Source: Chloranthus sessilifolius (taxonomy: Eukaryota > Streptophyta > Magnoliopsida > Chloranthales > Chloranthaceae). Taken from it: a stretch of 64,000 bases of DNA. The stretch covers positions 144,043,317-144,107,316 of the forward strand of contig CM037584.1 in assembly GCA_021018995.1 (NCBI GenBank), written 5' to 3'. The notes beneath the pieces were generated by a model. It saw only the letters and a program-made list of their open reading frames with translations, was not told where the DNA came from and did not search any database. The position numbers and the translations under genes were made by a program. Positions 1 to 64,000 of the stretch are shown in pieces (position 1 is the stretch's first letter; the number at the start of each line of letters is the position of its first letter).

Positions 1-963
1 GCACCTCGAGAAGTGTGTCTGAGCCTTGGGAAATTCCCAAAAGGTCCTTGTGTTAAAACTAAGAAGTGGGGAGCCCATGCTTCGTGGGGCTGGCATATGC
101 ATTAATTCATTCGCGCAATTACAGAGCCTTCGCAGAGTAGCCTCTGGTTGGTGGGAAGTGCTCACTCGTACAATAAATCTTCAGTTAATCGCCCAGTTCC
201 TTTGCGCTGCAATGCTGTCGTGGGGATGATCTGAAGTGCCAAGACTTCTCGCACAGTAGAGCTCCAGAAGCTCTCTCTCGTTGAGTACTCGCGCAGTTAT
301 GCTCCTGCGCTTGCGTAGTAACTGGTTTGGCTTCAGAGTGCGCGAGATCTGGCGAAGAGAATTCTAGGCGTCTCTCTCTTCCAGACCTATGCAAGAACTC
401 CACGAGGTAACATTTTGTTCAGTATACATATGGACTCGCTATGTTTTGCATGAGGCTTCTTTTAGGCTTGATCTCCACGAGAACTTTGTAATCATAAATT
501 CTGAGGATTTAAAACCATGAGATCTTCGCGATGTCTTTACAACTCTCCTCTTGACTACACGCCCCATCTACGCGAGGGCATCTTCCACTGTGTCCTTAGC
601 TTCGCGAGGAAGCTCCTCAACTCTGCGAGATCTATCTTTTGATGCTCTAATGCATTGCATTTGTTGCTATTGCAGTTTCCTCCATTCTCAGCTAACTTCA
701 TCCATCTGCTAGACTTTGGTCAATGATGACCAGCAAGTGAGTCACCATGGTGAGCACTACCAAGGTGTTTCATTAGGCTTTGGCTCAACTGCCATCTTTA
801 CCTGTATTCTCTCTTCTTTGAACCAAAAAGCAGAGATTTTGTATTAAGCTGCACAAATTATTGCTAACTATAAAACACACTTAACAGATGATTATTAGTG
901 AGCTTCAAGGCCCAGCAAAGGCTAGGTTAAGAGGTGAAAAGTGGTACTTTTCAGTGAATAACA
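1..963 (-). repeat. 3' LTR of element A (partial, cut by window start)
   Basis: Direct repeat of 10281-11243. In element orientation it starts TGTTATTCACTG at 963 and continues past base 1; by comparison with the 5' LTR about 1.7 kb lies outside the window. It contains many copies of a degenerate 9-mer, CTCGCGCAG and its reverse complement CTGCGCGAG or CTCTGCGAG. Confidence 0.9.
90..640. repeat. CTCGCGCAG/CTCTGCGAG motif cluster in LTR A
   Basis: Degenerate 9-mers in both orientations: TTCGCGCAA, TTCGCAGAG, CTCGCACAG, CTCGCGCAG, GTGCGCGAG, CTTCGCGAT, CTACGCGAG, CTTCGCGAG and CTCTGCGAG. The same cluster is at 10405-10920 in the other LTR, and a related cluster lies in the spacer at 6020-6350. 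The element is otherwise AT-rich, so CG-containing words stand out. Confidence 0.7.
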
Positions 964-974
964 CACTCCTAAAC
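964..974 (-). promoter_or_regulatory. Polypurine tract of element A
   Basis: Minus strand reads GTTTAGGAGTG directly before the 3' LTR start TGTTATTC. Element B has GTTTGGGGGTG in the same place, and both follow GGACTAGCAAAG. This is the expected plus-strand priming site. Confidence 0.75.
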
Positions 975-1155
975 TTAATCTTTGCTAGTCCTAAGCAAAG
1001 AAATATATAAAACAACTACTCTAAGAATTTAAATACCACTTTCGTAGGAAGCACGGATACATTTAGCATATGTACCAAGCCTTTTAAACCCCTAGGTGAT
1101 CCCTAGTGGAGGAGTGAAGTCTCCTGAGGGTTTTCAGTGAAGATACCCACAAACT
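975..1155 (-). promoter_or_regulatory. Conserved noncoding block upstream of the PPT, shared with element B
   Basis: On the minus strand this segment closely matches 30175-30364 of element B. Shared words include CACTAGGGATCACCTAGGGG, CTACGAAAGTGG and GGACTAGCAAAG. A short stem AGGAG/CTCCT is kept in both while the loop differs (ACTTCA here, ACACAA in B). No open reading frame crosses it in either element. A cis role in reverse transcription, packaging or RNA 3' processing is inference. Confidence 0.75.
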
Positions 1156-2890
1156 TCTCAATAAAGCAGTTAACAGAGGTACAAAATTATCAAGTCAACT
1201 GTCAAGAAATAGAGCATCAGTTCACCTTTGATTCATCAAAATTATGAGGAATTTGAACATATGATATACACAGACATTTAATCATCACAACTTTTACATA
1301 AATGCATATCATTTCCAATTAGCTCACAGCAAGGGAAAACATCACATGTAGGTCAGTACTGAGCTCATCATTAATTCAAAAATTAAGTTATAGGCCATGC
1401 CCAATACATTCAACATCAGACCCAATGCTCACCAGGGCATACTCTCACAAGGAACTTTGAGGGTTTCCATTTTCTCTCAAGCTTAAGAGTAGTTATAGGC
1501 CCTAAATGGGTCAGTAAGCGTGAGCATAGGCAAAGCACCTAAGTTCTGACATCATTGGCTAATCCTCACCATAGATTGGACAACTCTTTATCTCTGCATG
1601 ACAGCTCATTCAACTTTGGATCACAGGATCTTTGACTGGGTTGTAATGTGACTTATGGGATAGGTTGTAAAGAATGGAAGGTTGAAAAGCGATTCAAAAT
1701 TGACAAATCAGTAGGTGAAGGAGGTGATTCATGACTTCACCTTCTTTAGTTCAGCATCTTTCATTTTCTTTAAAATTCTTCAGACTTGAGGTGGCCAACT
1801 TCTCTTGTTTTCGATTTTTCCAATGAACTTTTCCTATTGACTCCTCTCTTATTCCTCTTCATTATTAATATTTTTTCTTTCTTTTGGATGTATTTTCCTT
1901 TTTGTTTTTGTTTTTATGACTTGCCACCTCTCTCCTCGGCTTCTATATTGCTAAGCTTTTGGTCTCTCTTCTCTTTTCACCCAATGTTGACTTTATCTTG
2001 TCCATCTTCAGCTCCTTCTCCTTTACCTTCTGATTTCTCAGAGTGAGGGTAAGTTTGAATCGGGTCCATAGGTTCGGGTACAAGTACTCAGGTGTATTTT
2101 AAAGAAAATTAGAAATTAAGGCTCAAAAGGTGTGTGCACAAGGGCAGTTGATTAGGGTTGGTCTGTTTGAGCTCAAACTGTCCAAGAGAAGGCCTTGATC
2201 ATTTCCTAAGTATCATGAGTACTATCAATTATTTCAACTTTGAGGTGCCTAACTTCTAGTGAGGGTATTGACTCAGTCAGTCCTTAGAGCTAGAAGAATT
2301 GCCTCAGTCACTCCTCAAAAAAAGGAAAAAAAAATTATAGGTCCAAATCTCACTAGTTATGGTCTTCCATTGAGCTGTTAGACATGTTCTTGCCTTTTCT
2401 CTCATTAGTGATTCGCTAAGTGCTGATATAAGTGAGTTTTCTTGGTGTTTACATCATGGAAATGCTAAAATTTAAAATCTTGTAATACTTAAAGGTCTGC
2501 AAAATTTTTTAAATTTCCCATTTTTTTATGATACTTAAGTGAACATGGCTCCATTTCTATACTACTCGCTTGATTTCTGCTGCACTTAGGTTAACTATTT
2601 CACTGGCAGGTCCTGCCACACCCCTAAACCTATGAGGAGCAGTGTCCTCACTGATTCAAAGTTAGATGTGGATGTGCAACAGATTTAAAATAGAAATATT
2701 AAAAGAAAAGAAAGTACACCAGGAAACAGACAACACAAACAAATAAAAATACAGAAGGACAATGAAGGAAACATTTTATAACAAAAAGAAATCTCTATTA
2801 TAACAGCAACAATATGTACATTGTAAGGGAAAGTAAACTATAAGATTACACACTACTTCCTAACTAAATACATGTGCAACAATTAATCAT
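1156..2890 (-). other. 3' untranslated region of element A
   Basis: Noncoding stretch between the accessory ORF stop and the conserved pre-PPT block. It is AT-rich with a T/C-rich patch at 1790-2040; the open frame there is low-complexity hydrophobic sequence with no family resemblance. I see no gene in it. Confidence 0.6.
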
Positions 2891-5636
2891 TTAATTATCT
2901 GTTGGTCTGTCCTTAATTTTTACTCCTTTCTCTTTAGCTGTATCTTTCTTCACAGCAGCAGGTTCCTGAGCAGGACCAGCAGTGGTGGCAGTTACTCCCC
3001 CAGTTAATTGAGCAAGTTGTCGTTCCAGGATTTCAGCCTTTTATTCTTCCAACTCAGTTCTGGCTGCAAAGAGCTCCCTGATTTCCTTTGATGTAGCCAA
3101 CCTTTTCTCCAATCCATCAGCCCTTAGCTTTTCTGTTACAATAGTCATCCTCTCTTGTTCAGCAATCAGTTTTGCTTGTATAGCCATACGCTCTTAGGCA
3201 TCATATAGACGTAACATTCTTTTCCAGTCCTTAGCTATGTTCTTCAGCTACATTTCGGTAACTAATTTCATGAAATGGATCCATGCTTCATAGGGCATCC
3301 GGATTGATGTTCTAATAACAGCCATCCCTCGAATGACATCCTTTTTTAGGTAAGGATTGGATTTTATCGCATGAAGGAGGGCGGAGTATGGAGGGATGGA
3401 GAAAAAAGAGGCATGAGCCAAGGACTGATCCTCACATGAAGAAGGGCCAGCCAGAAATGAGGAGGGGGAGGGGTGTGGTATGTCAGATTGGGGCTCAGGT
3501 TGGGGCTCAGGTTCAGGTTCTGTTTGGATCGACCTGAAAGAGGTGGGTAAGAGGTCATCCACATCTGTCGCAGCATTAGAGGTAGCTACAACTGGTGGGA
3601 GATCTGGGATAAGTTCAGGGTCTGTTTGGGTAATGGCTTCAGTGAAGGTAGGGAGGGGTGTGGGTATAGCTGAAGATAAAGATTGGGGGAAGAGGGGTGG
3701 AGTAGGGGAAGGTGGGGAGGTAGGGATAGTTGGTGAATGCGGTGGTTGGGGTAAAGTGGCTAAGGTTGCTTGAATGGCTTGTAGGCTGGTCTCTAGGTAG
3801 GCCTGGTTTTGGAGAGTGGAGGTTATGGAGCGAATATAAGTCTCAAGAGAGGCTTGGGTTTGGGTATTGGCCAACGTTTGGGACTGGAGGGGGAGTAGGA
3901 GGTGCAGGATTTGGGATAATAGGTCAGGTATGGTAGTGGTAGTGAGTTGGATAGGGGGAAGTGGGTTGATGAGTGAAGGTAGTGGCCTGGGGTGGTGTCT
4001 GATTTGGTGGGGTGAAGTGTGGAGGGTGAGGTGAGTCTGGGAGGGGTATATTCTAGGTTGATGTCTCCTAGAATAGTTGACATCATGCTAAAAAATTCCT
4101 CTCTTGTAAATGGGGCATGGTCATGGGATAATGGAATGGATTGGTCTAGGGGTTCACATGTGATAGGTACAAAGGGTGGGGTTTCAAAGGTATGGGCTTC
4201 AGGTTCATAGGGTGTGGGTATAGTGTCTGGAATGGTGGGGGTTTCAGGGATTGGAATTGTTTGGGAGATATAGGTGGGCTGGGGTCCAGTGGGGGTTTTG
4301 GTAGTTCTTCTTCTCTTCTGGTATGGGTCTTGACAGGTGGGCTAGTGTGGGCTAGAAACATAGGTAAGGGTGCAGACATGGGTAGGGTGTCAGTGGATAT
4401 GGTGGTTGGTGGTGAAATTGAGGTGGCTAAGGCTGGGGTGATTGGGCCTGGCATGGAGGTAGAGGGAATGGCTAGGGAGGTGATGATTGTGCTAGCTGGC
4501 ACATGTGAGGTGGAGGATGCAGTAGCAGCTGCAGCTTCATGAATGGTGGGGGCTGCTTCTCTCACTAACTCCTCCCTCTTCTTTTTCTTCTTCTCCATCA
4601 TGGTGCCACTGATTCCCCACTCTTTTTGGGGTTCAGGGCCACAGTCTCCTCCTCCCTTTTAAAGGGATATTTCCCCACTTCAACAATGCAGTAATCAATC
4701 TATAGTAGGGAAGCGCATGAGGTTTCTTTATTATTTTCACCTTCTCACATAAGTCTTTAATCCCCTCAAAAACTAATTTGGCTATATCTAAGTAGTGGTT
4801 TCTGTGAAATGAGAAGAGGGCATCAGCTATGGGGTACCTCCTCTTTTGCTCATGTCCAGAGTAATACACATTTTTCCTCAACACTACATCCATGAGTCTG
4901 AGGTTGGGGTGCAGATCCCTCTTCCTAATTGAGTCACCTGAGACAGTGATCCCTCCAGTTAAATCTCTGGCTATCTCAATAATAGTGGCAGTCAAAGGAG
5001 GACCCAAGCCACACTCAGGGCTATACCTGGCTAGTATCCCCAATATTTTTATAATGTCCGCCAATCAATACCTAGTTGATCAGCATCTCACAGTCATCAA
5101 TCAATACCAGCAGTGCTGGGTTCCCATCATCACCAATTTTCAATCTCATATTCTGATAAAACAATCTCACCAATCTTGGGAAAACCAACATCATCGAGCC
5201 TCAATAAGGGCAGCAGAGATGCCTTGGTCAAATATTCAATGGAGGCAGAGGTCTCTGGTAGCTCCTCAAAATAGGCTTTGTCAAAAATGGTTTCAGCCTC
5301 CAGCTTGATTGCTTGCACAAAGTCAGAAGGGACCCTGAGGTATTTAGTAGTCCCTTCCTCCTCTGCCTCAGGGGCCACAGCTTTTCCCTTTTTCTATTTC
5401 TTCTTTGATTTTTTAGGGCTCTTAGCAGGTGGGTGTTCTCTAGTCCTCTTCTTTGGGACAGATTTCTTCTTAGCTTGTGGAACTTGGGGCTCAACAACAG
5501 GTGTGGACACCTCAGAGGTCTCCAATGTGGAGGCCTCTACAATCCTTGCAAATTTTCTAATGGCTGCAGGGCTGCCACTAGCAGACGGGTTCAACATTAC
5601 AGCTAATGTATCTATGAACTTCGAACCCGTGGCCAT
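2891..5636 (-). pseudogene. Accessory ORF of element A (Transposase_32-like plant transposon protein), broken
   Basis: A long coding region of about 915 codons in element orientation, starting at an ATG in good context (CCCATGGCC). Order: a short N-terminus; a very basic segment near residues 55-80 (KKKSVPKKRTREHPP then KSPKKSKKK), a likely nuclear signal; a globular core at 5064-4633 with LVFEGIKD and LPYYRLITALL, matching VVFEGI and IPYASLV in C and VVIEGI and IPYARLIT in E; a second basic patch (MMEKKKKKREE); a long Pro/Ser/Thr-rich linker (4550-3400); and a C-terminal helical, probably coiled-coil region with many K/E/Q. It sits where Athila elements carry their env-like ORF. Several in-frame stops replace probable Gln codons and at least two frameshifts are present, so this copy is dead. 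The function of the family is unknown to me. Confidence 0.75.
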
Positions 5637-5699
5637 GGGTGTTCACTTATCAAAATTACGGCTCACCACTCTTAGAAAATGCATATCATACTAAGTAGG

Positions 5700-6790
5700 C
5701 ACAGAAGCTCCAAACTTATGCCCTTCTTCTCTCTAATAAATAAATCAATCACAACACAGAGAGAGAAATGGAGATCATTTAAGAGCTACGGTTCCACCTA
5801 AAAATGTACACAGTGGCTCAAATCTCCCCAAACCTTGTTCGAAGTGACCAGAAGTAGCTGGGGAACAAAATGGTGACAGAAAAATTCCTGAGGTGGTGTG
5901 GCTTAAAAAGGAGAGAAGAAAGAAGAAAAAGGGGATTTCAGTTTTGGTGTTGGGAATCTAGGCCAGATAGATGAAATGAAGAAAATGAGGGGTTTCACTG
6001 AGTTTATAGAGTAAATCCTACGGTTCGTAGAGTCTGCAACAGGAGCTCGCAGAGTAGAATTCTCGCACAGTTGGCATTTAATTTCGTGAGACGTTCTGTC
6101 GCGCAGAAGAACAAATTGCCTCATATTGAAATTCGCGGAGCTGAATCAATGGCTTTGGTGCGCAAGAGCTATTATCTTTCAGAATTATTACCTCGCGTAG
6201 CAGTCGCGCAGAACACCACATATGGCACACTTTTATGCTCAAAAAGTAACTCTGCGAGATACTTTTACAGCCATTGCTTAGCTGTTTTAGCGTGTGAGCA
6301 AGCTAAGAGATGGCTCACGCAGTAGATTTCAATCTTCTAGATCTGCGAGTCAGCATTTCTTCACAACCTGTACTCTGTTAGCTCAGTGCAGCACATTGGT
6401 TAGTGCATCCATGCTGTTGTGTACCCAACCACTGTGCATGAGCACCAACCCTCAAACAGGTACTTCATTTCAACCATGAAAAATATATGCCTATTTTCAA
6501 TCATCAGTTCATCAATATTGAAGAATACTACAAATAGTTTTTCAGCTCAACTTCATGCTAATTATGATAAGGGCACCTCAACCATTCATCAACAAACATA
6601 CACAGCAAATTCAAATGACACATATGCACATGTATTCAATCATAAAATGCAAGCACAGATAAAGCAACATAAGCAATTCAACAACACTCTAAAAACACAA
6701 CTGACAGATTTCTAAAGAACACAAAACAAAACAACATTTTTATATATATGATACACTTATTACCAACCTTTTGATCACTGAGCACTCGCT
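5700..6790. other. Spacer between gag and accessory ORF of element A, replacing pol
   Basis: This 1.1 kb lies where protease to integrase should be. I can read no RT (xDD), RNase H or integrase motif on either strand. It holds a cluster of CTCGCGCAG-like 9-mers (6020-6350) and AT-rich filler. Pol has been deleted, or this is a non-autonomous derivative. Confidence 0.65.
6020..6350. repeat. CTCGCGCAG/CTCTGCGAG motif cluster upstream of accessory ORF A
   Basis: About ten 9-mers in 330 bp in both orientations: CTCGCAGAG, CTCGCACAG, GTCGCGCAG (twice), TTCGCGGAG, CTCGCGTAG, CTCTGCGAG, CTCACGCAG and ATCTGCGAG among them. It is the same degenerate word as in the LTR of this element (90-640, 10405-10920), located a few hundred bases 5' of the accessory ORF start. 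Confidence 0.7.
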
Positions 6791-8133
6791 TCCACCTAAG
6801 TAGAGGATGCATCACCAATCATATACTGACCTTTTGGATTTATCAGGGGCTAACTAGGCAATTTTCCTTCCTCCCTTCTGTTCAAAGCATTACAAATTTA
6901 ACCTAACTATTCCTCAATCTTCTTGATGCTCTGTCCATGAGAATTAATAGTCTGTACTAGGCTCCCCATGTTTTGCATTGAAGCCAGTATCTGCTCTTCA
7001 AATGAAGAGGATTTAGGCTGTTGTGGGGGCAGGACCAACTAGTTAGACTGTGGGGCAGGTAACAGAAAATTTTGCCTCAGTGGGTAACCTTGATTAAATT
7101 GGTGTTGGGGTTTGTAAGGAGCTACCATTTACTATTGCTGGGGTTGAGGATATGAATCTTATCTCCACCTCAGATTTTGGTGGTTACTCCAAGAATACCT
7201 AGCAGGTTTCTGCCCAAAAGTTTGAGCAGCATTGGCATGCTCCATAACAAAATTCGAAAACTGGTTGGCAGATGGACAATTATTAATAGAATGTGTGGGA
7301 GATTGGCATATCAAACATGCCTCCTCCACCTGTGAAACCATCCGGGATTGCATCACATTCAGCAATTTGTTAAAATTTAAGCTCAGGTTGTCCACCTTCC
7401 TCTCCAGATCACCTTGCACCTTCATTTCATATACTCCACCTCTAGGGGTGACCTCTTTCACCATCTTAGCTGAAGTCTGACTGTCATTGCGTGACAGAGA
7501 CTCATGCTGCATGGAATTTTCCCCTATTATGTCAAACAGCTCCCAAGGTTCCTCAGTTGTCTTGTGGAGGTAGCTACCACCACAGGAAGCATTCACCATA
7601 TCCCTGCTCTTGGAATTAATTCCTTGATAAAATACTTGGACAAGCTACCACATTGGAATTTAGTGGTGGGGGCATTATTTCAACATCTCCTGGAATCTTT
7701 CTCAAGCTTCATAAAAATTTTCAGTTGAGGACTGAGTGAATGATAAAATATTTGTCCTCATCTAGCTAGTTTTGTTCATGGGAAAGAACTTGGCTAGGAA
7801 TTTGGTTTGAGGGTCACTCCATGACTGTATGCTATTTGCTGGGAGCTTTGATAGCCATGTGCTGGCTTTGTCCTTTAGTGAAAAAGGAATGAGTCTCAGT
7901 TTAGTGGCCTCAGGTCCCAAGCCAACAATCTTGAAAGTAGTGCAAAGTGCTAAAAATTGGTCGATATGCTTATAGGGATCTTCTTGACAAATCCCATGAA
8001 ACGAAGGCAGTATATTGATGGTGGAGGATTTAATCTCATAATTCCCTTCAACAGAGGGGAATTGAATGCAGAAGGGAGAGGTGTACTCCCCAGGTGCATC
8101 GTACTCCTTTAATGTTCTCTGCCTCTCAGCCAT
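6790..8133 (-). pseudogene. gag: gag of element A (Athila-like), broken
   Basis: Reads from 8133 leftwards as a retrotransposon gag. The N-terminal half has the capsid-like sequence seen in Athila gag (FHGICQEDPYKHIDQFL, then KLRLIPFSLKDKASTWL), parallel to FHGLANENPHVHLNEF and KLRLFPFSLRDKAKTWF in element B. A zinc knuckle follows (CLICQSPTHSINNC, CX2CX4HX4C). The tail has NRREEGKLPS, identical to the corresponding tail of B. Frameshift near 7760 and several stops, many at Trp or Gln positions, inactivate it. It forms particles and binds RNA in working elements. Confidence 0.85.
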
Positions 8134-8569
8134 GATAGCTGGTTCAGTTTCAACAGTAGGGCCCTGTGTGGTGTGTCTAGGTCAGAGGATCCTTTCAACC
8201 TCTAGATTTGAAGGTTATAACTTAGGGTTTAAGGACCTTCTACCATGCATATACGCACACCCACAGTAAGTACAGAGAATGCTCACAAGCACACTCAAAA
8301 GAATTTCAAACTAAAATTAACAACTACCTAAATTTACACCAAACAAATAACGGGGAATTAAACATAAATGGATTGAGATTTAGGGGAAAGGAAGTGCAAA
8401 TAGAGCTAGCTACACTCCAGCTGCAACTCTAGCTTTTCCCTTCTTCTGCTATCCATTTCTACAAAATTTCATAAAGAATCAGTAGTACTTTATTCTAGAT
8501 TAGGCACAGCTATAAGGAATTTGGAAGTCTAAATTATAGTACAACTCAGGTCTACTAAAAATATCAATC
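8134..8569 (-). other. 5' leader of element A between PBS and gag
   Basis: Noncoding stretch of about 430 bp between the primer binding site and the gag start. No gene is seen; it would hold any packaging signal. Confidence 0.6.
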
Positions 8570-8587: not shown

Positions 8588-8596
8588 AAAACATAT

Positions 8597-11243
8597 TGCA
8601 GACTCTTCGCTCTAGTGTGCTGATTATTGTGTGGTGAGAGCAAATTAAAATCAAAGTAAAATAAAAGAATGGATTTAGCAAAGCTAAAATAATCCTAGAC
8701 CTGCAAGATATAGGGTCCATTGTAGCAAGTTTTGATAAGATTTTGTCCCACAGAGAAATTTATCTAGAACCCAAAATGGGCTATAATAGTAGGCCTCCAG
8801 ATCTGGCTAACAGATCTTGCAATCCTAAAGAAAGGGAGTTGGGTGTCACGACTACACTAAATTAACCCTAACAAAAGATAAATAAAATATAGCCCTATCC
8901 TAAATAAAGGGTTAAGAAGAAGATGGTGATGGTGTGTGTCAAAATAAAATATAAAAAATGGTGAGAAGTAAGTAGGTTAAACCAGAGTTAAAGCAATCAT
9001 GTAACTCAAATTTAGTCTGTCTCTGCAGTGTTCCTTGCTAAGACGTTATCAAAAGCCTCAATAAGGTAGAAATATCAAACTTAACCCATGCTATTTGGGG
9101 TGCTCTTAAGGCTATAGGCTATCCACTCGAATGGCCACAACCTATCTTATAGAATCTGTCAAATCACATTAATCAAGCCAGAAATTGCTAATCTAATCCA
9201 GAGGAGTGGACTGATCATTTCCCCAACCACTAGACCAAATCAGGCCAAGAATATTATTGTAGCACTATATAATGCTAGTGCTACAAGCTCCCTAGATCTG
9301 CGCACAGATCTGGCTGACATCCATAGGTATTCCAACCTATAAAATCCTAAGTATTTTGCGAAGGCCAACGGCTCACTGTGCCCACAAAAAGGACCATGTA
9401 ACAGGTTAAATAAGGCTCTAGATTCAGCTGGTCATCACTATGAAAGGCCCATAATGATTCAGCCTCAAGCTGTAATTACTACAGAAAAATTAGATCTAAC
9501 ATCTGATATCGGTTAGGTAAAACAAAGGGGAGCCAGTTCCTGTACAAACCTCCTCACAAGGCTCTAGAAGCTCATGTGCAGGGGAGAAGAATTCTTCTCA
9601 AACATATGGCTAGACACCACCTTAGGGCTAAACTCTATCCACTCATCCCATTGGTCTATCCATACCACAAAGATCTGAAAAAGAACATATAAACTGCTGC
9701 AACCACCATGGTCCACAAGCCTCTGAGCTCCCTAGATCTCACTACAGATTTGGCTTTACTTTCCATGGGGCTATCAAACCAAGGAAAATCAGATGGTAAA
9801 CAATAGATCTACTGAAAACTAAATGGGCTAGTCTCGAATACAAGGATCCTATGGACATCTAAGGAAACCATAAGATCTTTAGATTCAAATAGTCATTAAA
9901 ATAGCAATCCATTAATAAAAGCAAAACTTATAATGAACTGCCTCTAGGTTACAGCCTGTACACAATTGCTCATCAAAAATCCCAATGTATACAAAACCTA
10001 TTATAAAACTGAAATAAAACTAAGCCTAGCTGCTTACCAGAGGATTAGCCTGCAAATGTTGGGCTAAGAGAGAAGAAAAATATGAAAAAGAGATGATCAA
10101 ACCCTAACCCTAGCCTGCTGGAGCTCTCAACCGACAGAGGATGAAGGAAGGATTGATGATTAAAGCTAAACTCTAAGTGTAGCTTATATACTCTGTCCAT
10201 AAGGCCTTGGCTCTAAAGAGATTAACCCTATTTTTTCTAGCAGACGTGGCACTATTACGACCCTTGAATGCCTTGAGATATGCACCTCGAGATCCATGCC
10301 TCGAGAAGTGTGCCCTAGCCTTGGGAAATTTTCAAAAGGTCCTTGTGTTAAAACTGAGAAGTGGGGAGTCTGTGCTTCGTGGGGCTGGCATATGCATTAA
10401 TTCATTCGCACAATTACAGAGCCTTCGCGAAGTAGCTTTTGGCTAGGAAGTGCTCACTCGCACAGGAAATCTTCAGTTAATCGCATAGTTCCTTTATACT
10501 GCAATGCTATCGTGGGGATGATCTGAAGTGCCTATACTTCTCGTGCAGTAGAGCTCCAAAAGCTCTCTCTCGCAGAGTCCTCGTGATTATGCTCCCTCGT
10601 AGTAGTAATGGTTCGACTTGAGTCGCTGAGATAGATGCGAAGAGAATTTCGCTCTCTCTTCCATGGCTATGCAAGAACTCTGCGAGGTAACATTTTGTTC
10701 AGTATACATATGGACTCGCTATGTTCCACATGCGGTTGCTTTAAGGCTTTATCTCAGCGAGAACTTCGCGATCACAAATTCTGAGGATTTTAAATCGCGA
10801 GATCTTTGCGATGTCTTTACAGCTCTCCTCTTAACTGCATGCCCCATCTGCATGAGGGCATCTTCCACTACATCCTTAGCTTCGCAAGGAAGCTCCTCAA
10901 CTCTGCAAGATCTGTCTTTTGATACTCTGATGTATTACACTTGCTGCTGTTGCAGTTTCCTCCATTCTCTGCTAACTTCATCTATCTGCTAGACTTTGGT
11001 CAATAATGATCAACAAGTGAGTCACCATGGTGAGTACTACTAAGGTGTTCCATTAGGCTTTGGCTCAGCTGTCGTCTTTGCATGTATTCTCTCTTCTTTG
11101 GACCAAAAAGTAGGGATTTTGTATTAAGCTGCACAGATTATTACTAACTACAAAACACACTTAACACACGATTATTAGTGAGCTTCAAGGCCCAACAAAG
11201 GCTATGTTAAGAGGTGAAAAGTGGTACTTTTCAGTGAATAACA
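8597..11243 (-). repeat. 5' LTR of element A
   Basis: About 2.65 kb. The outer terminus at 11243 (TGTTATTC on the minus strand) is set by the break in similarity with the other LTR; the inner terminus near 8597 (TGCA) is set by the adjacent PBS. It carries the second copy of the CTCGCGCAG motif cluster at 10405-10920. The part at 8597-10280 has no partner in the window because the other LTR is cut. Confidence 0.82.
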
Positions 11244-17252: not shown

Positions 17253-18821
17253 TGATCTGTGTCGAAATATGACTATATTTCGCACCCTAAATACTAACAT
17301 TTAGCTATCCGATGAAGGCATTCTAACGGCTGCTGTATAGTTTTAGTGGTTTCAGGTGTTACGGACCGTGGGATGTTGAAAGAGCTTAAGTGAATAAAAT
17401 TAAAGGACTATATGAACTTTGGACCATGGAGCCAGCGGAAGCACTGAAATCCATGAAAAAGACTGATTGGTCTAGCCACAGTTTCGAGAGTTAAATATGT
17501 CACACGCCCATTTCAATCGATTGAGATTTGAAACTCAATCGATTGAGTTTAAAAAGTTGCCCAAAAATCAATAGATTGATTTCCAAAATCAATAGATTGA
17601 TTTCTAAAATCAATAAATTGATTTCCAAAAATCAATAGATTGATTTCCAAAATCAATAGATTGATTTCCAAAATTCAATAGATTGATTTCCAAAATCAAT
17701 AGATTGAATTTGGAATTCAATAGATTGATTTTCGAAAATCAATCGATTGAATTCCTTAAATTCAATAGATTGATTTTGGGAATGGAAATGAGCCACCAAA
17801 ATTCGAATTTTGAATTCAATCGATTGAATTCAAAATTCAATCGATTGATTTCAAAATTCAATCTATTGATTCGGATATGGAATAATTTTAGCCCGGGGCC
17901 CTATTTAAACAACAGGATGTTTAGGGTTCAGGGGGACTTCTGCTCGGTAGATTTTCTAAGGGCCTTTAGCAATTTTTTCTTTGATATTTTTAGTTTTGTA
18001 TTTAGATAAAAAGCTGTGTAAGGTTGTGATCTTCTCCAAAAAGATCAAGTGCTTGATAAATAAAAGAGCAATTTTTGTGATGGCTTTCGATTTACATTGT
18101 GCGTGTGGATCAAGGATGAGCGGCTAAACCCCTCGTGCAAGGAGGAAGCGACCCCTAGATGAGTAACTAACTTACTTTTAAGCTTACAATTTCTTGTTAG
18201 AATTATTGAATCGTACGGCTTTTAGTGTGTGCTTCATTGTGTTATCATCGAATACTCGTTTATAGCCGTCGACCGTGTGATCGGCGACAATAAACGAATT
18301 ATTCCACCTAGATCGATCTTGTAGATCGACATAGGATGCCGTGCGGTTGATTCTTACGGTTGTGATTTCGAATTTGAGATACGCTATGCCTTTCGCATGA
18401 TGCATGCCGTGATTGGATGCATCATAGTGTTCGGATAGGGTATGCCGAATCAATAATTGCATTTTCATCGATTCGTTTTTCTTGTAGTTAAATGATGGTA
18501 TAATGATTTAACATGAAATTGTGTGGTTGATTGTAGAAAAGTTATAAATCTAGGGTTAGCAACTCCTTGATCATTTCATCATTGTTAATTTTTTTTAATC
18601 ATAGTTCATCCGTGCATAGCTTGATTTAGTTCTTTTGATTATTGCATTGTGTAGTGGTAAATCTTGACAATGAAATCTCTCACCCTTGGTACTTCCTTGG
18701 GTCTTTGAAATCTCTTTAAAATTAATCTAATTTTGCGCTTCCCTATGGGTTCGACACCCTTAATTTTGCCGTGCTACAATCGAACTTGTGCACTTGCAAG
18801 GGTACACTTTAAAACCGATCA
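17253..18821 (+). mobile_element. Solo LTR, Athila-type, related to LTR B
   Basis: Starts TGATCTGTGTCGAAATATGA and ends AAAACCGATCA. Its start parallels LTR B (TGATCGGTGCTGAAATATGA) and so does its end (GTGGGTTCGACACC, CACTTGCAAGGGT, GATCA). No internal retrotransposon sequence remains and both sides carry GTCCT, so this is a solo LTR left by LTR-LTR recombination. It holds a dense array of CAATAGATTG-type palindromes at 17505-17880. A short open frame on the minus strand (18184-18468) has no family resemblance. Confidence 0.92.
17505..17880. repeat. Palindrome array CAAT(C/A)GATTG in the solo LTR
   Basis: About 15 units of CAATCGATTG or CAATAGATTG, many in a 24-25 bp period with TTTCCAAAAT spacers. 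Part of the array is a near-tandem repeat (17560-17700). Related but sparser units occur in LTR B. Confidence 0.92.
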
Positions 18822-20330: not shown

Positions 20331-20399
20331 TTCAACTTTGGCATGCTTCACGAGGGCATATTGGAGATTTCCACCAATTAGGGCATCTACTTCCAACTA

Positions 20400-20590
20400 G
20401 TGTCAATCGATTGAGACATAAAATTCAATCGATTGAGACAAAAAGGCAAAAGTGTCCTAAAGGTGATTAAACTAGTGTCAATCGATTGAGACATGAAATT
20501 CAATCGATTGAGACAAAAAGGCAAAAGTGTCCTAAAGGTGATTAAATTAAAAGTTCAATCGATTGAGATTTAAGCCTCAATCGATTGAGG
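20400..20590. repeat. CAATCGATTGAG palindromes in LTR B
   Basis: Six units. Four of them are two copies of a 70-bp segment (GTGTCAATCGATTGAGACAT and its partner) repeated in tandem. Confidence 0.92.
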
Positions 20591-21440
20591 CAATTAGGGT
20601 TAGGTTGAATCGGCTATTATAAATAAGAGGCTGCGGCATTGTAAAAGAGAGCTTTTGAATATGGAAGAGTTTTCATTCTGAGAAAAATTTGTGTAATAAT
20701 TTGCCGAGAGAGACTTTTGTAGAGGGTTTTCTTAGAGTAATAAAATTGTGTTGAGATTTTTCGGAGAACATATTTTATTTTACACCTTCTTTGCTCTTTA
20801 CTTTGGGAATGGTTTTGAATGAAATTGAAGATCTTGCACCAAGGATGAGAGGCTAAAGGCTGTAGATCAAGGAGGATGCGATCCCCAGATAAGTACCCAT
20901 ATTTTATGTTTAATGCCATAGTTTGATAATTTCATCATCAAATCGTTTTTCTCAAAGTGTAGTGATCATGTTTTTATTGTTTTGATCTAAAATACCATGA
21001 GATACGCTATGCTTTTCACATGATTCATACCGCTTATTAATTGTTTTAGATAGGGTATGTCGGGTTAATGATCATGCTTAATTACTAGTCATGTTTCTCT
21101 TAGAATGATGGTGCGTTTGATGTTAATAAAATTGTGGGTTTAAAAATAGAAAAGGGTATAAATCTGGGGTAGCAAATTCCTTGATCTTGTTTTTAAAATT
21201 TGTTCTTAGATTTCTCATTACATAATTTTTAGATTAATTTATTTTCTTTCTTGCAATTAGAAAAAGTGTTAATTTTTGGTAAAAATTAAATATGCCCCTT
21301 GGTACTTCCTCGAGGATATTTTCTAAATCTCTAGGAAGAATTGATTAAAGTTTCAGATTTCCCTGTGGGTTCGACACCTTTGTTCTTGCCTTACTAGAAC
21401 AGATCTTGTACACTTGCAAGGGTTTATTTAAAAACGATCA

Positions 21441-21504: not shown

Positions 21505-22570
21505 AACAGTCAATCGATTGAGACTTGTTTCTCAATCGATTGAGGTTGTGTGTTTTTGGCAATAATTGTGCCTCAATCGATTGACTTAACTCTGTCAATC
21601 GATTGACTTAACTCTGTCAATCGATTGACAAACTTGAAAATTAAAAAAAAAATATAAATAAATAAATAAATAAAATAAAATAAATTCTTTCCCTAATTTT
21701 CTTTCTTAGATTAGATTTTGTGATATTCTTTAGGAAGTTTAGGTTTTTAGAAGTTCTTAGTTTAGAAGTTTTTCTTTTTTTTATTATTTTCCACTTTTAG
21801 AAATTTTAGGATTTTCTAAAAATTGGTTATTCATTTTTTTTAGGAAGTTTATATTTTTAGGAAATTTATATTCTTAGTTTAGAAGTTTTTCTTTTTTTTA
21901 TTGTTTTCCACTTTTAGAAATTTTAGGATTTTCTAAAAATTGGTTATTCATTTTTTTTAGGAAGTTTATATTTTTAGGAAATTTATATTCTTAGTTTAGA
22001 AGTTTTCTTTTAGGAAAGATTTTCTAGGTTTTTAATTTCTAATTTCTAATTTTCGAATTTAGATTTTATTTTTATTTTTTTTTAATTTTAATTTTAAAAA
22101 AAAAAAAAAAAAAACATAATAATAATAATAATAAAAATAAAAATAATAAAAATAAAAAAATAAAAAAATAAAAATAAAAATAAAAATTTCCTGAGTGGTT
22201 TTCTTTCCTTTTTCTTCTTACTTTGATCTCTGTTCATAGCAGCATTCAATCGATTGAAGCTCCTTTCTCAATCGATTGATACTGAGCTACTTTCTGTGTG
22301 CTCTCTACTCTTTTCTCAATCGATTGACATTCCTATGTCAATCAATTGACAGAACTCTTGTGTGTTTTAATCTTTGAACCTCAATCGATTGAGAGAAGAC
22401 TCTCAATCGATTGACTGACAAAGTCTTTTTCTGATATTCTGTGTGCTTTCTGACTCTTGGAACCTCAATCGATTGAGAGCATCCCCTCAATCGATTGACT
22501 GACAAGTCATTTGTGTGAAATTTTATGTGCTTCTGTCAATCTATTGAGACCACTGTCTCAATCGATTGAG
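21505..22570. repeat. CAATCGATTG palindromes upstream of gag in element B
   Basis: About 15 units in two clusters. In the second cluster they come in pairs 8-15 bp apart, with flanks alternating CTCAATCGATTGAG and GTCAATCGATTGAC. They use the same core as LTR B. Confidence 0.92.
21756..22010 (+). repeat. 117-bp tandem repeat in leader of B
   Basis: CTTAGTTTAGAAGTTTTTC recurs at 21756, 21873 and, slightly changed, 21990, giving a period of 117 bp over a little more than two units. Confidence 0.88.
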
Positions 22571-35905: not shown

Positions 35906-36159
35906 TTCACGTATATATATACAAACCGCGTTTTGAAGTTCATTTTTTTTCAAAAATTTTGGGGTTTCCGTTAGGGTTTTTGAGGGTTTTTTTTTACATT
36001 GGAGGATCAAACGAACGATCAATTACGCTAGATCCTTCGAGGAATCGAATCCAAATCGCCTCAAAGCGGTAAACCTTGAAACTTCGATTCTTGATTTCTT
36101 GCCTTGGGTTGAAAAAATTTCTTATTTGACTAAAACCCTAGTTTTGGTTTTCATAGACC
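35906..36159 (+). other. Leader of accessory ORF C with possible 5' UTR intron
   Basis: Noncoding. After AAAGCG a donor-like GTAAACC (about 36069) and a pyrimidine-containing acceptor GTTTTCATAG directly before ACCATGG could bound an intron of about 87 bp. Element E shows a comparable arrangement before its accessory ORF. Confidence 0.4.
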
Positions 36160-49959: not shown

Positions 49960-49994
<35 letters not shown>

Positions 49995-54626: not shown

Positions 54627-56976
54627 TGTAACAACCCTAAAATCTAGAACACGAACCTAACTATTTCGATCTACGTGCCCGGCACGGAAATCGAGACCGA
54701 TTAAAAAAAAAATTTAGAATTTATATTAATTGAGATCAAGTTACACCATGGTTAGATGAGTTCACCTGTGTAATTTTCATTTGAATCGGAGTTGGGTAGA
54801 AAGTCAGTGTAGCACGTTGCGTCGTAGCGACCGTGTTCGTGCTCCACACCGGAACATAAGCTAAGGAAAACAGAAATATCTGTTTTGTAGCTTATAAGAG
54901 AAGGAAGGGAGAGGTAGAGGAAGTTCTTCTTCTTCTTCTTCTTCTTCCCCTTGCCCTAGTGTTCTAACAGCTAAGGAGTCTGTAGCTAGGTAGGTTTGCA
55001 AGAGGGTTTTTGTATGAAACAGGGTTAGTAGGATTGAAAGGTGAGTTTCCTAAGCTAGGGTATGTAGAGACCAATGGATTAAGCTTAGGTATGGGTTGTG
55101 TGTGTGAAGTGTACATCAACTGTGAGCTAAAGGTTGCTCGTCGAACTCGGATCGGTGATAAAACCCGAGAGCTTGATCCAAACCCTCATCCGAGTGTTTG
55201 TTAAACTCAAAAGGGCCCACAAAGAGGTGAGCTCCCTTGTTTAAAAATGGGCAGTTGGATGCCCTAAATATAGGTTTTATATGAATAGTTAAGATTTTAG
55301 TGGATTTTTAGAAGAAAAATAAGTTAGAAAAAATTTGGTTGGTGAACTCCATTAATGACTGAAAATTCGACATTGGTGATCGATCACCAAGGGTGTTGAT
55401 CGATCACTAAGTATGGAATTGATCGATCAACAGTGGTGGTGATGGATCAATCTATATAAACAGTAAAGGAACATTATGGCAGAGAGTTGGGGAGTTTTGG
55501 GTTAACATTGGTGATCGATCAACAAGGTATTGATCGATCAATCAACAAGGTATTGATCGATCAACCAACATGGTGATCGATCAATGGTGTACAATATACA
55601 TGTGTGGGTGCTTTGGTGATCGATCAACAGTGGTGTTGATCGATCAATGAAGAGTTCATTGATCGATCAACAAGGTATTGATCGATCAATAAACCCTGTT
55701 TTCAGACAGTTAGAAAAAGTATATGTAAGAACCACTGGACATTGTGCCAGTTCACAATCTGTCACTCTAACACCTAGAGTAACATGTTTATGGTCTAGGA
55801 TCAGACTAAGATGCCTTGAAAAAGCTTTGGATTTGCTTAGAAGGAGCTTGATCCGAGGTAGGGGAATTCAACCGAAATTGCATTTATTTTTGATCTCATG
55901 GTTTATATCTGTCATACACATCTCAGCATAGTTTAATTCTGTTTTAAAAGCATGTTTAGCATATGTATGAGCATTCTATTCTGTACTTGATCCGACATTT
56001 GACATCCGCATCCGGAATCAATTACATTAAGTATGATAAGTATGCATGTGATTTGAGGTTTAATATTCAAAAATCCCACCGACTTCGGGCGGTATATCCG
56101 CTTCGAGCACACTTGTGCATTTTCTTTGTAATCCTCGGCACAATTGCACTCCGGTGTGGGGCATTGTTGCAATTAAAAATTGTTCATGTGAACGATGGTT
56201 GGGATTTATCCATCGGACCAAATCGCTACCACGTGCTATACTCACGGGAGTTACTTAAGTATACTACACTAAGTCATTATATGTTGTATTCATCAATTCA
56301 TCGCTTTTGGATAAATGTCTCATGATTTATACATCATTTGCATAATTTCAGCTTTTGTTCTTTGATGACCATGTTATGCAATTAGGATGTAATTTTATTT
56401 GAATTCTTCTATTGAGCTAGGATGTAGCTCACCGCTTTTTGTAAACATTTAGGTTCGAGGCGTAGCTCCGGCTCGAGAGCGACCTGCACTATCACCGATC
56501 CTGAGGCTGAGGTTGAGGACGAGGAGACAGACACCCCAGCTGACGACTTTTACCCATAGACTGGGTATAGCTTAGACATTTTTGGGTTTGTACGTTGTTT
56601 GGAGACTTTGGATTATGTGTGCCTGGTGGCCACTTTTGTATTAACTTTTGTATATATTTTATTTCTTTTATAGTGTTATTATACATTCTATCGGAACCAT
56701 CATTGGGAACCATTGTTTGGGTGATGGATGACTGTTACCGATGGTTCTTTTTGGTTCCTTTTTGAGGATGTATACTTTCTACATTTATAAATGGAGGTTT
56801 CTCTATGTTTTTTTTTTTTTTTTACTTTTAGATTGATTTATTAGATGACTCTACTTGCCGCTGTGGGATTGTATCTGTATAATTCCGCTATATATACAGA
56901 TATTATGTGATTTGTCCTAGGGATCATCCAGTGTATGATCCTCGATTGATTGAAATCACGAAATTGATGTCATACA
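54627..56976 (+). repeat. 5' LTR of element E
   Basis: 2350 bp, TGTAACAACCC to GATGTCATACA. The end is set by the primer binding site that follows. Carries a GATCGATC palindrome array at 55377-55690, about 750 bases from the start, matching the position of the array in LTR C (586 bases from the start). Confidence 0.78.
55377..55690. repeat. GATCGATC palindrome array in LTR E
   Basis: About 12 units of GTGATCGATCAC, TTGATCGATCAA and variants such as TTGATCGATCAC, mostly in pairs. Confidence 0.93.
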
Positions 56977-56990: not shown

Positions 56991-57075
56991 CTAGGCTTTA
57001 GGTTGAACTATGGGTTCATAACGATTGTTTTACAATCTATATGTCTTGATCAATGTTGTTGTTTTCAGACCGATT

Positions 57076-58487: not shown

Positions 58488-59700
<1,213 letters not shown>

Positions 59701-61633: not shown

Positions 61634-61709
61634 GTATCCTTTAAGGCATTCCCGAGGTTACGATTTTCTAGTTTAAGTAATTAGTTAGGTAATTAACACT
61701 TGTTTTCAG
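61634..61709 (+). other. 76-bp intron-like insertion in the integrase of element E
   Basis: Coding runs ...HVEFQ (ends CAG, 61633), then GTATCC ... TGTTTTCAG, then GTTGGAGAC (VGDNVFVKISP). Element C has DFQVGDHVFVK without interruption at the same point. Exact phase, GT-AG ends and a pyrimidine-containing acceptor all fit a spliceosomal intron, though very short. Confidence 0.7.
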
Positions 61710-62129
61710 GTTGGAGACAATGTGTTTGTAAAAATATCGCCAACAAAGGGTGTCATGCGCTTCGGAAGACGAGGAAAGTTGAGTCCTCGGTATATTGGCC
61801 CCTTTGAGGTACTCGGACGGGTTGGCGAGGTTGCGTATCGGATTGCTTTGCCACCACAGTTGGCGAGCATGCATAATGTTTTTCATGTATCGATGCTGCG
61901 ACGTTACGTGCATGATCCGACACATGTCTTGGATTTTCAACCAATTGAATTACAAGAAGATCTAACCATGGTTGAAGAACCAATAGAGATCTTGGATCAA
62001 CGGGACCAAGTTTTGAGGACCAAATTAATTCCGCTAGTACTTGTCAAATGGCGGAATCATACTGCTTCGGAAGCCACTTGGGAACGTGCTGCCGAGATTC
62101 GTGAACAGTATCCACACTTGTTCACTTAA
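61710..62129 (+). CDS. Integrase C-terminus and chromodomain of element E
   Basis: An open frame to the TAA at 62127: VGDNVFVKISPTKGVMRFGR, RGKLSPRYIGPFEVLGRVGE, MHNVFHVSMLRRYVHDPTHV, then the chromodomain LVLVKWRNHTASEATWERAA and EIREQYPHLFT. In chromoviruses this module directs integration to methylated-histone chromatin. It is the 3' end of a larger broken polyprotein, so expression as such is unlikely. An ATG in the same frame occurs at about 61756. Confidence 0.85.
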   Translation, partial: VGDNVFVKISPTKGVMRFGRRGKLSPRYIGPFEVLGRVGEVAYRIALPPQLASMHNVFHVSMLRRYVHDPTHVLDFQPIELQEDLTMVEEPIEILDQRDQVLRTKLIPLVLVKWRNHTASEATWERAAEIREQYPHLFT

Positions 62130-62715
62130 TGCGCAAGGTAAATTTCTTTTTTGAGTTTGTTTCTAAATTCATCATCGTGATTATAACTTGATGATTAGAT
62201 TTATCTCATCAACTCGATTTGCCGTATATTTTGGGCCATGTATGTGATGTACATGTATCGGTATCTTTCTATTACGGTTAAGTCATTTTAACGGTCCCAT
62301 TTTTACAAGAAAACTTTTTTAACAAGGTGGTGATCGATCAACAGGGAGGTTGGTGATCGATCAACAAGTGTACTGTTGATCGATCAACATTGAATGTGGT
62401 GATCGATCAACAGGTCGGGTTAGGTTTTTATTTGAACTTAAAATTTTTGTGGTGATCGATCAACCACCAATGAATTGATCGATCACCAACACACTTTTGA
62501 GTTATAAAAAGGGTTTTGAACGGTCATTTGCTCTATCCTATTCACGTGAACGAGCAAGGGGCTTTTGCACTCCGACCTTTCAACTTCCCTTCCGACTCAC
62601 TTCCGGCCATTTCCATCCCTTCTTCGGCTTGATTCGCGTGGACATCGCTCCATTCACCCGGTAAAATCCTTGTTCGTTTCCTTTCGATCCTCATTTTCAT
62701 TTTTTTTGTAAGAAA
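62130..62715 (+). other. Spacer between pol and accessory ORF of element E
   Basis: Noncoding, 590 bp. It contains the palindrome array 62330-62490 and, close to the accessory ORF, a donor-like CCCGGTAAAATCC (about 62660) and an acceptor-like TTTTTTTTGTAAG (ending 62711), 10 bases before the ATG. Confidence 0.6.
62330..62490. repeat. GATCGATC palindrome array before accessory ORF E
   Basis: Six units, all GTGATCGATCAAC, TTGATCGATCAAC or TTGATCGATCACC; the same family as the LTR E array at 55377-55690. Confidence 0.93.
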
Positions 62716-62721
62716 TTGACC

Positions 62722-64000
62722 ATGGGACCTCGCACGAAGAACCCTTCGCGTAAGGTACCCACATCTCGGGCGCGTGCCCCGGATCCGCCCACCATTCCCG
62801 TTCCCCCACCGACCGTGCCACCCACGGCACCGATTCCGGATGTGGTTCCACCCATCCCGGCCCCCATTGAGCGTGAAGTCCCCAAAGAGTGGTGGGCTAC
62901 CAAAACTTTTCTACCCGAGTATAGGTTTATACCTACTCTCTATGATGATCGCCCTGAAATGGCGTGGGCCAAGGGCTACCTTCAAAAGTTAGGGTTAAAA
63001 CCCTTGCTTGAGCCGTTTTATGATCACTATTGCCCTCGCATAGTGCGGCTCTTTTTCCAAAACCTTCATTGGGGGGATTCCCGACACCGACTCGTCACTA
63101 CCATTGACGGGTTTGAGTATAAATTTAACCGGTTCCATGTTGCCGCTGCCCTAGAGTGTGCAACCACTCACCTTGATACGCGTGGCTTGGCGCCACCGTA
63201 TGAGAAAGTGGTTCCTTTTGCTGATGTCATCACCAAGATGACCAACGGCAAGCATGGGAAGGGCCAATCTATTTCTAGGGCCCAACTACCCGACAAACTG
63301 TGGATGCTTGACACTTATTTCAAGTGTGCACTCGTTCCCTTTTTGCACAAGTCCTCACGGACTGGTGTTGTCCAGATGGCCCTCTTTTCGGCCTTTGAGG
63401 ATCGTTGGTATCCGATGGCCGAGGTCGTGATTGAGGGCATCATCACCGCCCGCGACCTTATGACCGAAAAGGCGAAGGCGGGAGCCACAAAACAAATCCC
63501 CTATGCTCGCCTAATCACAAAGCTGGTGGAGCAATATGTTGCTCTACGCGAGCACTATAGCTTGGCTCCAAATGAGCATCGCTTAACCAACAACACTAAA
63601 GTCTTTAAGCTAAAGGACTGGACCAAAAGTTATAATCTTTTGGTCAAGAGACTACCCGACCCCGAGGAGGAGGGTGACGACGAGGCTGCTGAGCCCGTTA
63701 TTCCTGAGGGTGGAGCACCTGATGTACCGGCTCCTAGTGGGGGGGAGGCCCCATCTGATCAGCCACCTCAGCCTGAGGTGCTACCTCGACCGTCTACCCC
63801 ATCACGGCGACCACGCGTTCTTCTTCACACGCCGCCCTACACCGCACTGCCTGCCCCTATCCTCTGCCCCATCCACCGTTACTCTTGACACCGTGCTTGC
63901 TGCAGTCCTCGAGGGTAACAAACACATACATGAGCGCTTGGATGGGATTGAGCTGTTTCAGCGTCAGGTTCATCAGCGGCTCGACTACGCCGAGGGCATG
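62722..64000 (+). CDS. Accessory ORF of element E (Transposase_32-like plant transposon protein), cut by window end
   Basis: ATG in strong context (GACCATGGG). N-terminus is basic and Pro-rich (MGPRTKNPSRKVPTSRARAP, then PPTIPVPPPT). The core has EWWATKTFLPEYRF, LQKLGLKPLLEPFYDHYCPR, VRLFFQNLHWGD, FEYKFNRFHVAAALEC, LWMLDTYFKCALVPFLHKSS, ALFSAFEDRWYPMAEVVIEG and IPYARLITKLVEQY. It ends as a Pro/Glu-rich tail. The frame closes at 63888, but the helical tail HERLDGIELFQRQVHQRLDY found next in another frame matches C (NHQLNQRLDYYELL), so the stop reflects a one-base shift. This is the best-preserved of the three homologous copies. Function unknown. Confidence 0.83.

What the first reader, a model, noticed from the sequence alone, without database searches (positions are those of the whole stretch)
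1..64000. Element-specific palindrome arrays placed both in the LTR and in an internal spacer
Each retroelement here carries its own short palindrome or motif, identical within the element and different between elements. The pairs are: B, CAATCGATTG in the LTR (20400-20590) and before gag (21505-22570); C, TTCGATCGATCGAA in the LTR (38525-39000) and before the accessory ORF (35505-35905); E, TTGATCGATCAA/GTGATCGATCAC in the LTR (55377-55690) and before the accessory ORF (62330-62490). A has a degenerate CTCGCGCAG word in the LTR (90-640, 10405-10920) and before the accessory ORF (6020-6350). The solo LTR and LTR D have CAATAGATTG and AATCGATTAATCGATT. Most share an ATCGAT or GATCGATC core. Same word in two places, changed together per element, suggests sites for a sequence-specific protein that co-evolves with the element, at the LTR promoter and a second promoter. 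Binding is inference.
Basis: partly seen in the sequence, partly recalled or inferred. Interest (0 to 1): 0.9.

Follow-up and report, generated by a model that had tools for sequence, protein, structure and literature searches.

The report
Retrotransposon families with private palindrome arrays
In this plant genome several families of jumping genes carry their own short repeated DNA word, in most families a palindrome spaced every two turns of the helix, both in the terminal promoter and in front of an internal gene, which looks like a private on-switch for each family.

Summary
For A, B, C and E the segment of the 64 kb most like the LTR array is the same element's internal array (4 of 4, A narrowly). 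New: words sit mostly 19-23 bp apart (two helical turns) in B, C, D, E, the solo LTR and other genome copies, not in A. In C and E the internal array ends just before a TATA box preceding the accessory ORF; A has a weaker one. All 10 E-family copies fetched keep the internal array, 9 of 10 the same core in the LTR; half-site flanks differ by subfamily, largely alike in both places. One of four arbitrarily placed 10-kb pieces held a further family with another word in both places.

Best reading: operator arrays for a sequence-specific protein at two promoters, plausibly the accessory protein itself (VANC-like). Against: B and compact elements have arrays but no detectable accessory ORF; binding is untested.

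The parts
85..650 (-). A, 3' LTR array region (degenerate CTCGCGCAG words)
10400..10930 (-). A, 5' LTR array region (LTR pair 4-967 / 10299-11246, 87% identical)
6010..6360 (-). A, internal array, followed (minus strand) by a TATA-like CTCTATAAACTC near 6010 and an ATG at 5636
3251..5636 (-). A, accessory ORF region, broken into several frames; piece 4636-5064 has a sub-threshold PF20167 match
7762..8181 (-). A, gag piece (PF03732)
17510..17880 (.). solo-LTR array, TCAAT(A/C)GATTGA words mostly every 21-22 bp
20395..20600 (+). B, 5' LTR array TCAATCGATTGA, ends about 24 bp before a TATA box (TTATAAATA, 20617)
30928..31110 (+). B, 3' LTR array
21505..22570 (+). B, internal arrays (two blocks) between 5' LTR and gag ATG at 22740
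32070..32290 (+). D array AATCGATTAATCGATT
35505..35905 (+). C, internal array (TTCGATCGATCGAA-like)
35912..35922 (+). C, TATA-like TATATATATA directly behind the internal array
36160..37300 (+). C, accessory ORF (broken; pieces 36192-36668 and 36515-37084 match the E-family profile; the second was in the profile, the first was not); right end approximate
38525..39000 (+). C, 3' LTR array; no TATA-like box close to it (next at 39399)
54627..56946 (+). E, 5' LTR (95-97% identical to the 3' LTR in L024 395-2780)
55370..55695 (+). E, LTR array TGATCGATCA; a TATA-like box lies inside it at 55453
61689..62126 (+). E, integrase C terminus with chromodomain
62325..62490 (+). E, internal array: 6 words TGATCGATCA, spacings 23,23,23,53,23
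62502..62512 (+). E, TATA box TTATAAAAAGG between array and accessory ORF
62722..63888 (+). E, accessory ORF, 388 aa, basic N terminus, pI 9.0

Best explanation
Each family carries an operator array: a private word, in most families a palindrome of 10-14 bp, repeated at about two helical turns. One array sits in the LTR (upstream of a TATA box in B, around one in E; none is close to it in the LTRs of A and C), the second in front of the accessory ORF (A, C, E, F) or before gag (B). SHOWN by sequence: words, positions, LTR-internal concordance, two-turn spacing, constant words with variable spacers, persistence in E copies. INFERRED: a symmetric (dimeric) DNA-binding protein occupies neighbouring palindromes on one face of the helix and turns on, or protects from silencing, the LTR and accessory promoters together. 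INFERRED, less sure: the protein is the nuclear-looking accessory product (basic N terminus, remote PF20167), so the accessory gene is autoregulated and the word diverges by family, as in the VANC/VANDAL anti-silencing system; compact elements with the C word would be free riders in trans. My split: operator arrays for some sequence-specific protein about 0.85; accessory protein as the binder about 0.45.
For: Concordance: own internal array ranks first in the 64 kb for 4 of 4 elements, A by 0.344 to 0.284 (matrix). Spacing: 19-23 bp is the commonest class in B, C, D, E, the solo LTR and compact elements; the word-blind detector finds arrays at 18-24 bp and nothing at 25-31, 29-35 or 36-42 bp. 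Constancy: 13 B internal words, picked by their ATCGAT core, are identical over 12 bp with 0-0.7 bits per position outside; word/spacer identity 1.0/0.47 (E internal), 1.0/0.43 (E LTR), 1.0/0.29 (B internal), 1.0/0.64 (B LTR). Internal arrays end just upstream of TATA boxes in C and E, a TATA-like one in A; TATA box behind B's LTR array. E family: 10 of 10 fetched copies have 5-11 words before the accessory ATG, array end to ATG 163-259 bp; 9 of 10 have the core in the LTR. The TACA flank occurs in L025, L026 and L029 only of 11 copies: internal 5, 5, 4; LTR 4, 3, 0. Independent family F: word ATCGAACGTTCGAT with up to 3 mismatches, 9 matches in 13 kb, 3 before the ORF, 6 in the LTR, none elsewhere.
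Against: No binding data. Compact Ty3 elements carry the C word with no accessory ORF found and no room for one; B has arrays but no accessory ORF found. The accessory protein has no recognised DNA-binding domain: PF20167 only below its cut-off, no credible PDB relative (best E 0.26), single-sequence model useless (pLDDT 37.7). The core GATCGATC is unchanged between E subfamilies whose accessory ORFs are 71-76% identical. F's LTR array is more like C arrays (0.55) than like F's own internal array (0.44). A shows no phasing and a weak match. LTRs of A and C have no TATA-like box near the array, and in E2 and E3 copies the TATA position is non-canonical. L029's LTR lacks TACA and has AACA (4) and more AATG (3), unlike its internal array; L032 has no LTR array in its piece. 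Between E subfamilies arrays diverge about as much as the leader behind them, so constancy of words is shown within arrays, not by alignment between subfamilies.
Confidence: 0.5

Rival explanations
1. Host transcription factors (a paralogous family reading GAT-type or ATCGAT-type half-sites) bind the arrays; each retrotransposon lineage has evolved enhancer arrays for a different member, and the accessory gene merely borrows the same enhancer.
For: Shared ATCGAT-type core in most words; arrays in elements with no accessory ORF found; same 14-bp word in C and in compact elements whose RT is only about 35-41% identical; the same spacing across lineages.
Against: Words differ strongly between families in one genome, and A's word is unrelated; LTR and internal copies agree inside families. 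Neither point excludes a host factor family.
Confidence: 0.35
2. Neutral minisatellites: words spread by slippage and gene conversion between LTR and internal spacer, without function (plant LTR elements often carry tandem repeats).
For: Tandem structure is real; E LTR spacers partly repeat; E arrays diverge between subfamilies about as much as the leader; about half of the recently active Retand elements carry tandem arrays (PMC11963269, abstract).
Against: Identical words with divergent spacers within arrays, two-turn spacing in families with different words, placement next to TATA boxes in B LTR, C, E.
Confidence: 0.08
3. RNA-level signals: palindromes in the genomic RNA act in dimerisation or packaging.
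For: Palindromes can form kissing loops (general knowledge); B's internal array lies in the leader before gag.
Against: In A, C, E and F the second array sits far downstream, before the accessory ORF; B's LTR array and part of E's lie before a TATA box; helical spacing has no reason in RNA.
Confidence: 0.05

Closest known systems
VANC / VANDAL anti-silencing system of Arabidopsis (PMC5735166, PMC10398659; passages seen)
   Same: Element families with their own short motif accumulated in non-coding regions, divergent between families, and an extra protein; in VANDAL the protein binds the motif and causes loss of silencing marks.
   Different: VANDALs are DNA transposons with a transposase; VANC carries DUF1985/DUF287, and DUF1985 was not found here; motifs reported there (YAGTATTAY, AGTTGTCC/AGTTGTAC) are not the palindromes seen here; no binding or methylation data here.
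Tekay and Athila LTR elements with additional ORFs (PMC11728184, PMC7264820; passages seen)
   Same: Ty3 elements with an additional ORF; in sunflower the products have predicted nuclear localisation and an Athila aORF shows partial similarity to PF20167.
   Different: The sunflower Tekay aORF is a 5' aORF; here the ORF is 3' of pol in sense orientation. The passages seen mention no word arrays shared by LTR and aORF promoter.
Retand elements with TRP28 antisense ORFs and family-specific tandem repeats (PMC11963269; abstract and discussion read)
   Same: Additional ORF between pol and 3' LTR, predicted DNA binding, family-specific tandem arrays.
   Different: Antisense ORF, other domain; no match between arrays and LTR reported in what I read.
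Maize Grande gene23 (cited in PMC7264820; reference title and review passage only)
   Same: Accessory gene with its own promoter and a nuclear product.
   Different: Antisense; no operator arrays described in the passages seen.

Membership tests
VANC/VANDAL anti-silencing systems | DNA transposon with transposase | tested here: not met
   E has LTRs, Ty3-type pol and chromodomain; C has RT and integrase pieces
VANC/VANDAL anti-silencing systems | Protein with DUF1985 | tested here: not met
   No DUF1985 hit at E up to 10 in the 9 members of A1 or the 8 pieces scanned
VANC/VANDAL anti-silencing systems | Family-specific short motif accumulated in non-coding regions | tested here: met
VANC/VANDAL anti-silencing systems | Protein binds the motif and lowers DNA methylation of its element | not testable with these tools
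   needs EMSA/DAP-seq and bisulfite data
Plant Ty3 chromovirus (element E) | LTR pair, RT/RNase H, integrase, chromodomain | tested here: met
   LTRs 95-97% identical; pol-like ORF 59502-61070 (by eye and by similarity to C's RT frames); PF00385 25.6 bits against cut-off 25.1, SH3_Tf2-1 94.3 bits. The Tekay label is recalled; no tree was built
PF20167 (Transposase_32) accessory proteins | Score above Pfam gathering cut-off (45 bits) | tested here: not met
   Best 22.4 bits (A piece), 16.6 bits along positions 2-173 of 177 (L027); 7 of 9 members match at E up to 10
Athila (elements A, B) | Athila placement by phylogeny | not tested
   Only Retrotrans_gag PF03732 hits; the Athila label is recalled, from no call

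The most novel reading that the evidence does not exclude
A large, diversified class of plant Ty3 retrotransposons encodes PF20167-like proteins that are sequence-specific, self-recognising activators or anti-silencers, reading family-specific palindromes at two-helical-turn spacing in the LTR and in their own gene's promoter: a VANC-type system that arose separately in LTR retrotransposons, with compact elements parasitising it through shared words.
Probability: 0.35. Interest if true: 0.93.

Novelty: new variant of a known kind. Interest (0 to 1): 0.76.

Why it matters
[quoted passage not shown]). Here promoter anatomy links one class of accessory ORF to the LTR through a shared word, mostly family-private, which gives a concrete candidate target sequence for each protein. 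If the accessory proteins read these words, plants would hold many natural pairs of diverged DNA-binding proteins and sites, and self-specific escape from silencing would not be a peculiarity of VANDAL transposons.

Tried and rejected
Considered and rejected: chance; neutral minisatellite and RNA signal (see rivals). CGATACGTATCG clusters in other loci looked like a further family, but in the loci printed they lie in a ~300-bp fold-back unit, not an LTR array. A de novo EM motif for A drifted into a low-information CG-rich pattern and was replaced by word counts. Half-site variants of C against compact elements gave only weak differences (lowest p 0.004 for internal, 0.03 for LTR; five positions tested, uncorrected). 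Structure of the E accessory domain: one single-sequence job, pLDDT 37.7, not used. A search of viral contigs and a tblastn of plasmids found no relative, as expected for a plant gene. Literature: 52 papers hold at least one of five words searched; none of the 10 listed holds any of the four longer words, the other 42 were not listed. The listings showed me no description of arrays shared by LTR and aORF promoter, but I saw listings, abstracts and passages only.

Not done: copies of the C, A, B and F families genome-wide (search unanswered), so the multi-copy test exists for E only. The 10 E copies were picked by me for divergence, not at random. The word for F was chosen by eye after seeing both places. 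The 18-24 bp band is not unique in the detector: bands 11-17 and 15-21 bp also flag most of the same arrays, because a 6-mer and its complement lie within one palindrome.
Full report
WHAT IS THERE. The window is part of a 2.17-Gb assembly (species not named; plant by its elements). It holds several LTR elements: A (minus strand, LTR pair 4-967/10299-11246, gag piece, broken accessory ORF), B (repeats 19847-21440/30376-31975), a solo LTR, D (array only), C (pol, internal array, broken accessory ORF, 3' LTR array; I found no 5' LTR) and E (5' LTR 54627-56946, chromodomain pol, internal array, accessory ORF, 3' LTR in L024).

ARRAYS ARE REAL. All 250-bp bins with 4 or more G/C-containing palindromes of 10 nt or more are named arrays; simulated windows reach 3 at most. 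Bands of 25-31, 29-35 and 36-42 bp flag nothing and 32-38 one AT-rich tandem stretch; bands 11-17 and 15-21 flag most of the same arrays, because a 6-mer and its complement recur within one palindrome. In four arbitrary 10-kb pieces plus a 3-kb extension the detector flags the F LTR array and one other repeat (CTTATC). A is not flagged; its support is word counts (CTCGCGCAG with up to 1 mismatch: 8 in LTR stretches, 5 internal, 0 in the rest of A, 1 in 52.7 kb outside).

LTR AND INTERNAL WORDS MATCH. 6-mer cosine LTR/internal is 0.85 (E), 0.82 (C), 0.52 (B), 0.29-0.33 (A); pairs from different elements lie mostly below 0.26, with C-E 0.41-0.44 and B, solo LTR and D 0.24-0.41 among each other. 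Sliding over the whole window, the segment most like each LTR array is its own internal array in 4 of 4 elements; for A the margin is small (0.344 against 0.284).

GRAMMAR. Neighbouring words are mostly 19-23 bp apart centre to centre in B, C, D, E, the solo LTR and compact genome elements, with larger gaps often at 42-55 bp. Concentration at period 10.5 is 0.55 for 126 window spacings and 0.46 for 76 spacings counted once per array; but the pooled compact, E-LTR and C-only sets concentrate as well or better at some other periods, because one spacing class dominates, so the safe claim is 'two turns apart', not a proven 10.5-bp comb. A alone shows no such order (p 0.23). Words picked by their core are constant while neighbouring spacer is not: 13 B internal words identical over 12 bp, spacer identity 0.29 (B internal), 0.43 (E LTR), 0.47 (E internal), 0.64 (B LTR). 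This fits a dimer on each palindrome, neighbours on the same face of the helix (inference).

TWO PROMOTERS. B: LTR array ends about 24 bp before TTATAAATA. E internal: array end 62484, TTATAAAAAGG at 62502, ATG 62722. C internal: array end 35905, TATATATATA at 35912, ATG 36160. A internal (minus): CTCTATAAACTC close behind the array, ATG 5636. TATA-like hits are common in this AT-rich window (2.5 per kb), so position in one element alone proves little. No TATA-like box lies close to the LTR arrays of A and C, and in E2/E3 copies the internal position is not a canonical TATA box. E's LTR array surrounds a TATA-like box. B's internal array precedes gag; no TATA-like box lies between its last block and gag.

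GENOME COPIES. The E accessory protein has 48,682 first-look candidates; the 106 best were scored, and 72 of these 106 show no stop inside the match (counted). I fetched 10 of the 106, chosen for divergence: six from the 72-74% group and four from the 82-86% group. By array flanks they fall into E1 (L031-L034), E2 (L027, L028, L030) and E3 (L025, L026, L029). All 10 have the internal array, 5-11 words, ending 163-259 bp before the ATG; 9 of 10 show the same core in the 3' LTR, L032 shows none in its 3.5-kb piece. Flanks of the core differ by subfamily: TACA halves occur only in E3 (internal 5, 5, 4; LTR 4, 3, 0), ACCA leads E3 LTRs, AATG leads E2 LTRs, AACA leads E1 LTRs. Agreement is not perfect: L029's LTR has AACA (4) and AATG (3) where its internal array has 0 and 1, and in E2 the internal leaders (AATA/AACA in L027 and L030) are not the LTR leader (AATG). 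Array stretches of the window copy against E2/E3 copies align at 0.46-0.58 with gaps, the leader behind them at 0.54-0.65, the ORF at 0.74-0.76: arrays turn over about as fast as the leader, so the constancy of the word shows within arrays.

AN INDEPENDENT FAMILY. Of four 10-kb pieces taken at round coordinates (L035, L036, L037, L039), one (L037) holds a diverged accessory ORF (36-42% to E) behind a chromodomain region. Its LTR array (across the end of L037 and L038) and the spacer before its ORF share ATCGAACGTTCGAT-like words: 9 matches with up to 3 mismatches in 13 kb, 6 in the LTR at spacings 20, 20, 48, 21, 20 and 3 before the ORF (44, 21), none elsewhere; the word was chosen by eye after seeing both. 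Within the locus the best 90-bp match to the LTR array is the spacer (0.437, next 0.262), but C arrays of the window score higher (0.552), so F is not cleanly distinct from C by this measure.

THE ACCESSORY PROTEIN. E, C and F share a basic N terminus and an EWW-containing domain (read); C's first piece, not used in the profile, matches it at 1.2e-9. L027 aligns along nearly all of PF20167 (positions 2-173 of 177) but at 16.6 bits, far below the 45-bit cut-off. No DNA-binding fold is shown: no credible PDB relative, failed single-sequence model, whose secondary structure I do not use.

WHAT SPEAKS AGAINST A SELF-ENCODED BINDER. Nineteen 10-kb pieces around TTCGATCGATCGAA hits (L005-L023, two of them overlapping; 14,269 genome copies of the word against 10 for the reversed control) contain no accessory ORF by profile (best E 0.32 in L010). 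In the eight loci tested by self-comparison, LTR repeats flank about 4.7-5.3 kb, little more than gag-pol; in five of them (L005, L009, L014, L018, L020) the repeat is 1.0-1.1 kb. So the word of C also serves elements with a quite different RT (35-41% identical where hit). Either these ride on a C-type protein, or a host factor reads the word. B points the same way. The pieces were chosen for the word, so they say nothing about how common such elements are.

VERDICT. Operator arrays for a sequence-specific protein at the LTR and at a second promoter: well supported by anatomy, untested by experiment. The identity of the protein: open, with the accessory product slightly ahead of a host factor family in my estimate. 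In print, VANC/VANDAL is the nearest mechanism (PMC5735166 and PMC10398659, passages), and a 2026 paper says it remains to be investigated whether such ORFs of LTR elements shape methylation (PMC12844716, passage).

Noticed in passing
L005 4330-4480, L006 8770-8990, L016 2890-3070, L022 650-860: A ~300-bp fold-back, MITE-like unit bounded by CCATGG(G/A)TYAAAATATCG-like ends, built of GTATCG words including CGATACGTATCG palindromes; related words lie at window 43190-43240.
   Followed up: partly
60167-60676: E carries a 255-bp in-frame tandem duplication inside its RT/RNase H frame (99% identical copies).
   Followed up: no
L007 2590-2760: Another array type (TCGATTAATCGA, TCGATGCATCGA, TCGATACATCGA) followed by CTATTTAAAG, possibly a further family with its own word.
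   Followed up: no
L011 6240-6640: TCAATCGATTGA and CTCAATAGATTGAG words mixed in one array, linking the B word and the solo-LTR word.
   Followed up: no
30550-30750 and 47750-48000: Two further stretches with a 6-mer (GGTTGA; CCTAGC) recurring at 18-24 bp that are not among the palindrome arrays.
   Followed up: no
21754-22011: AT-rich 117-bp tandem duplication between the two B internal array blocks.
   Followed up: no
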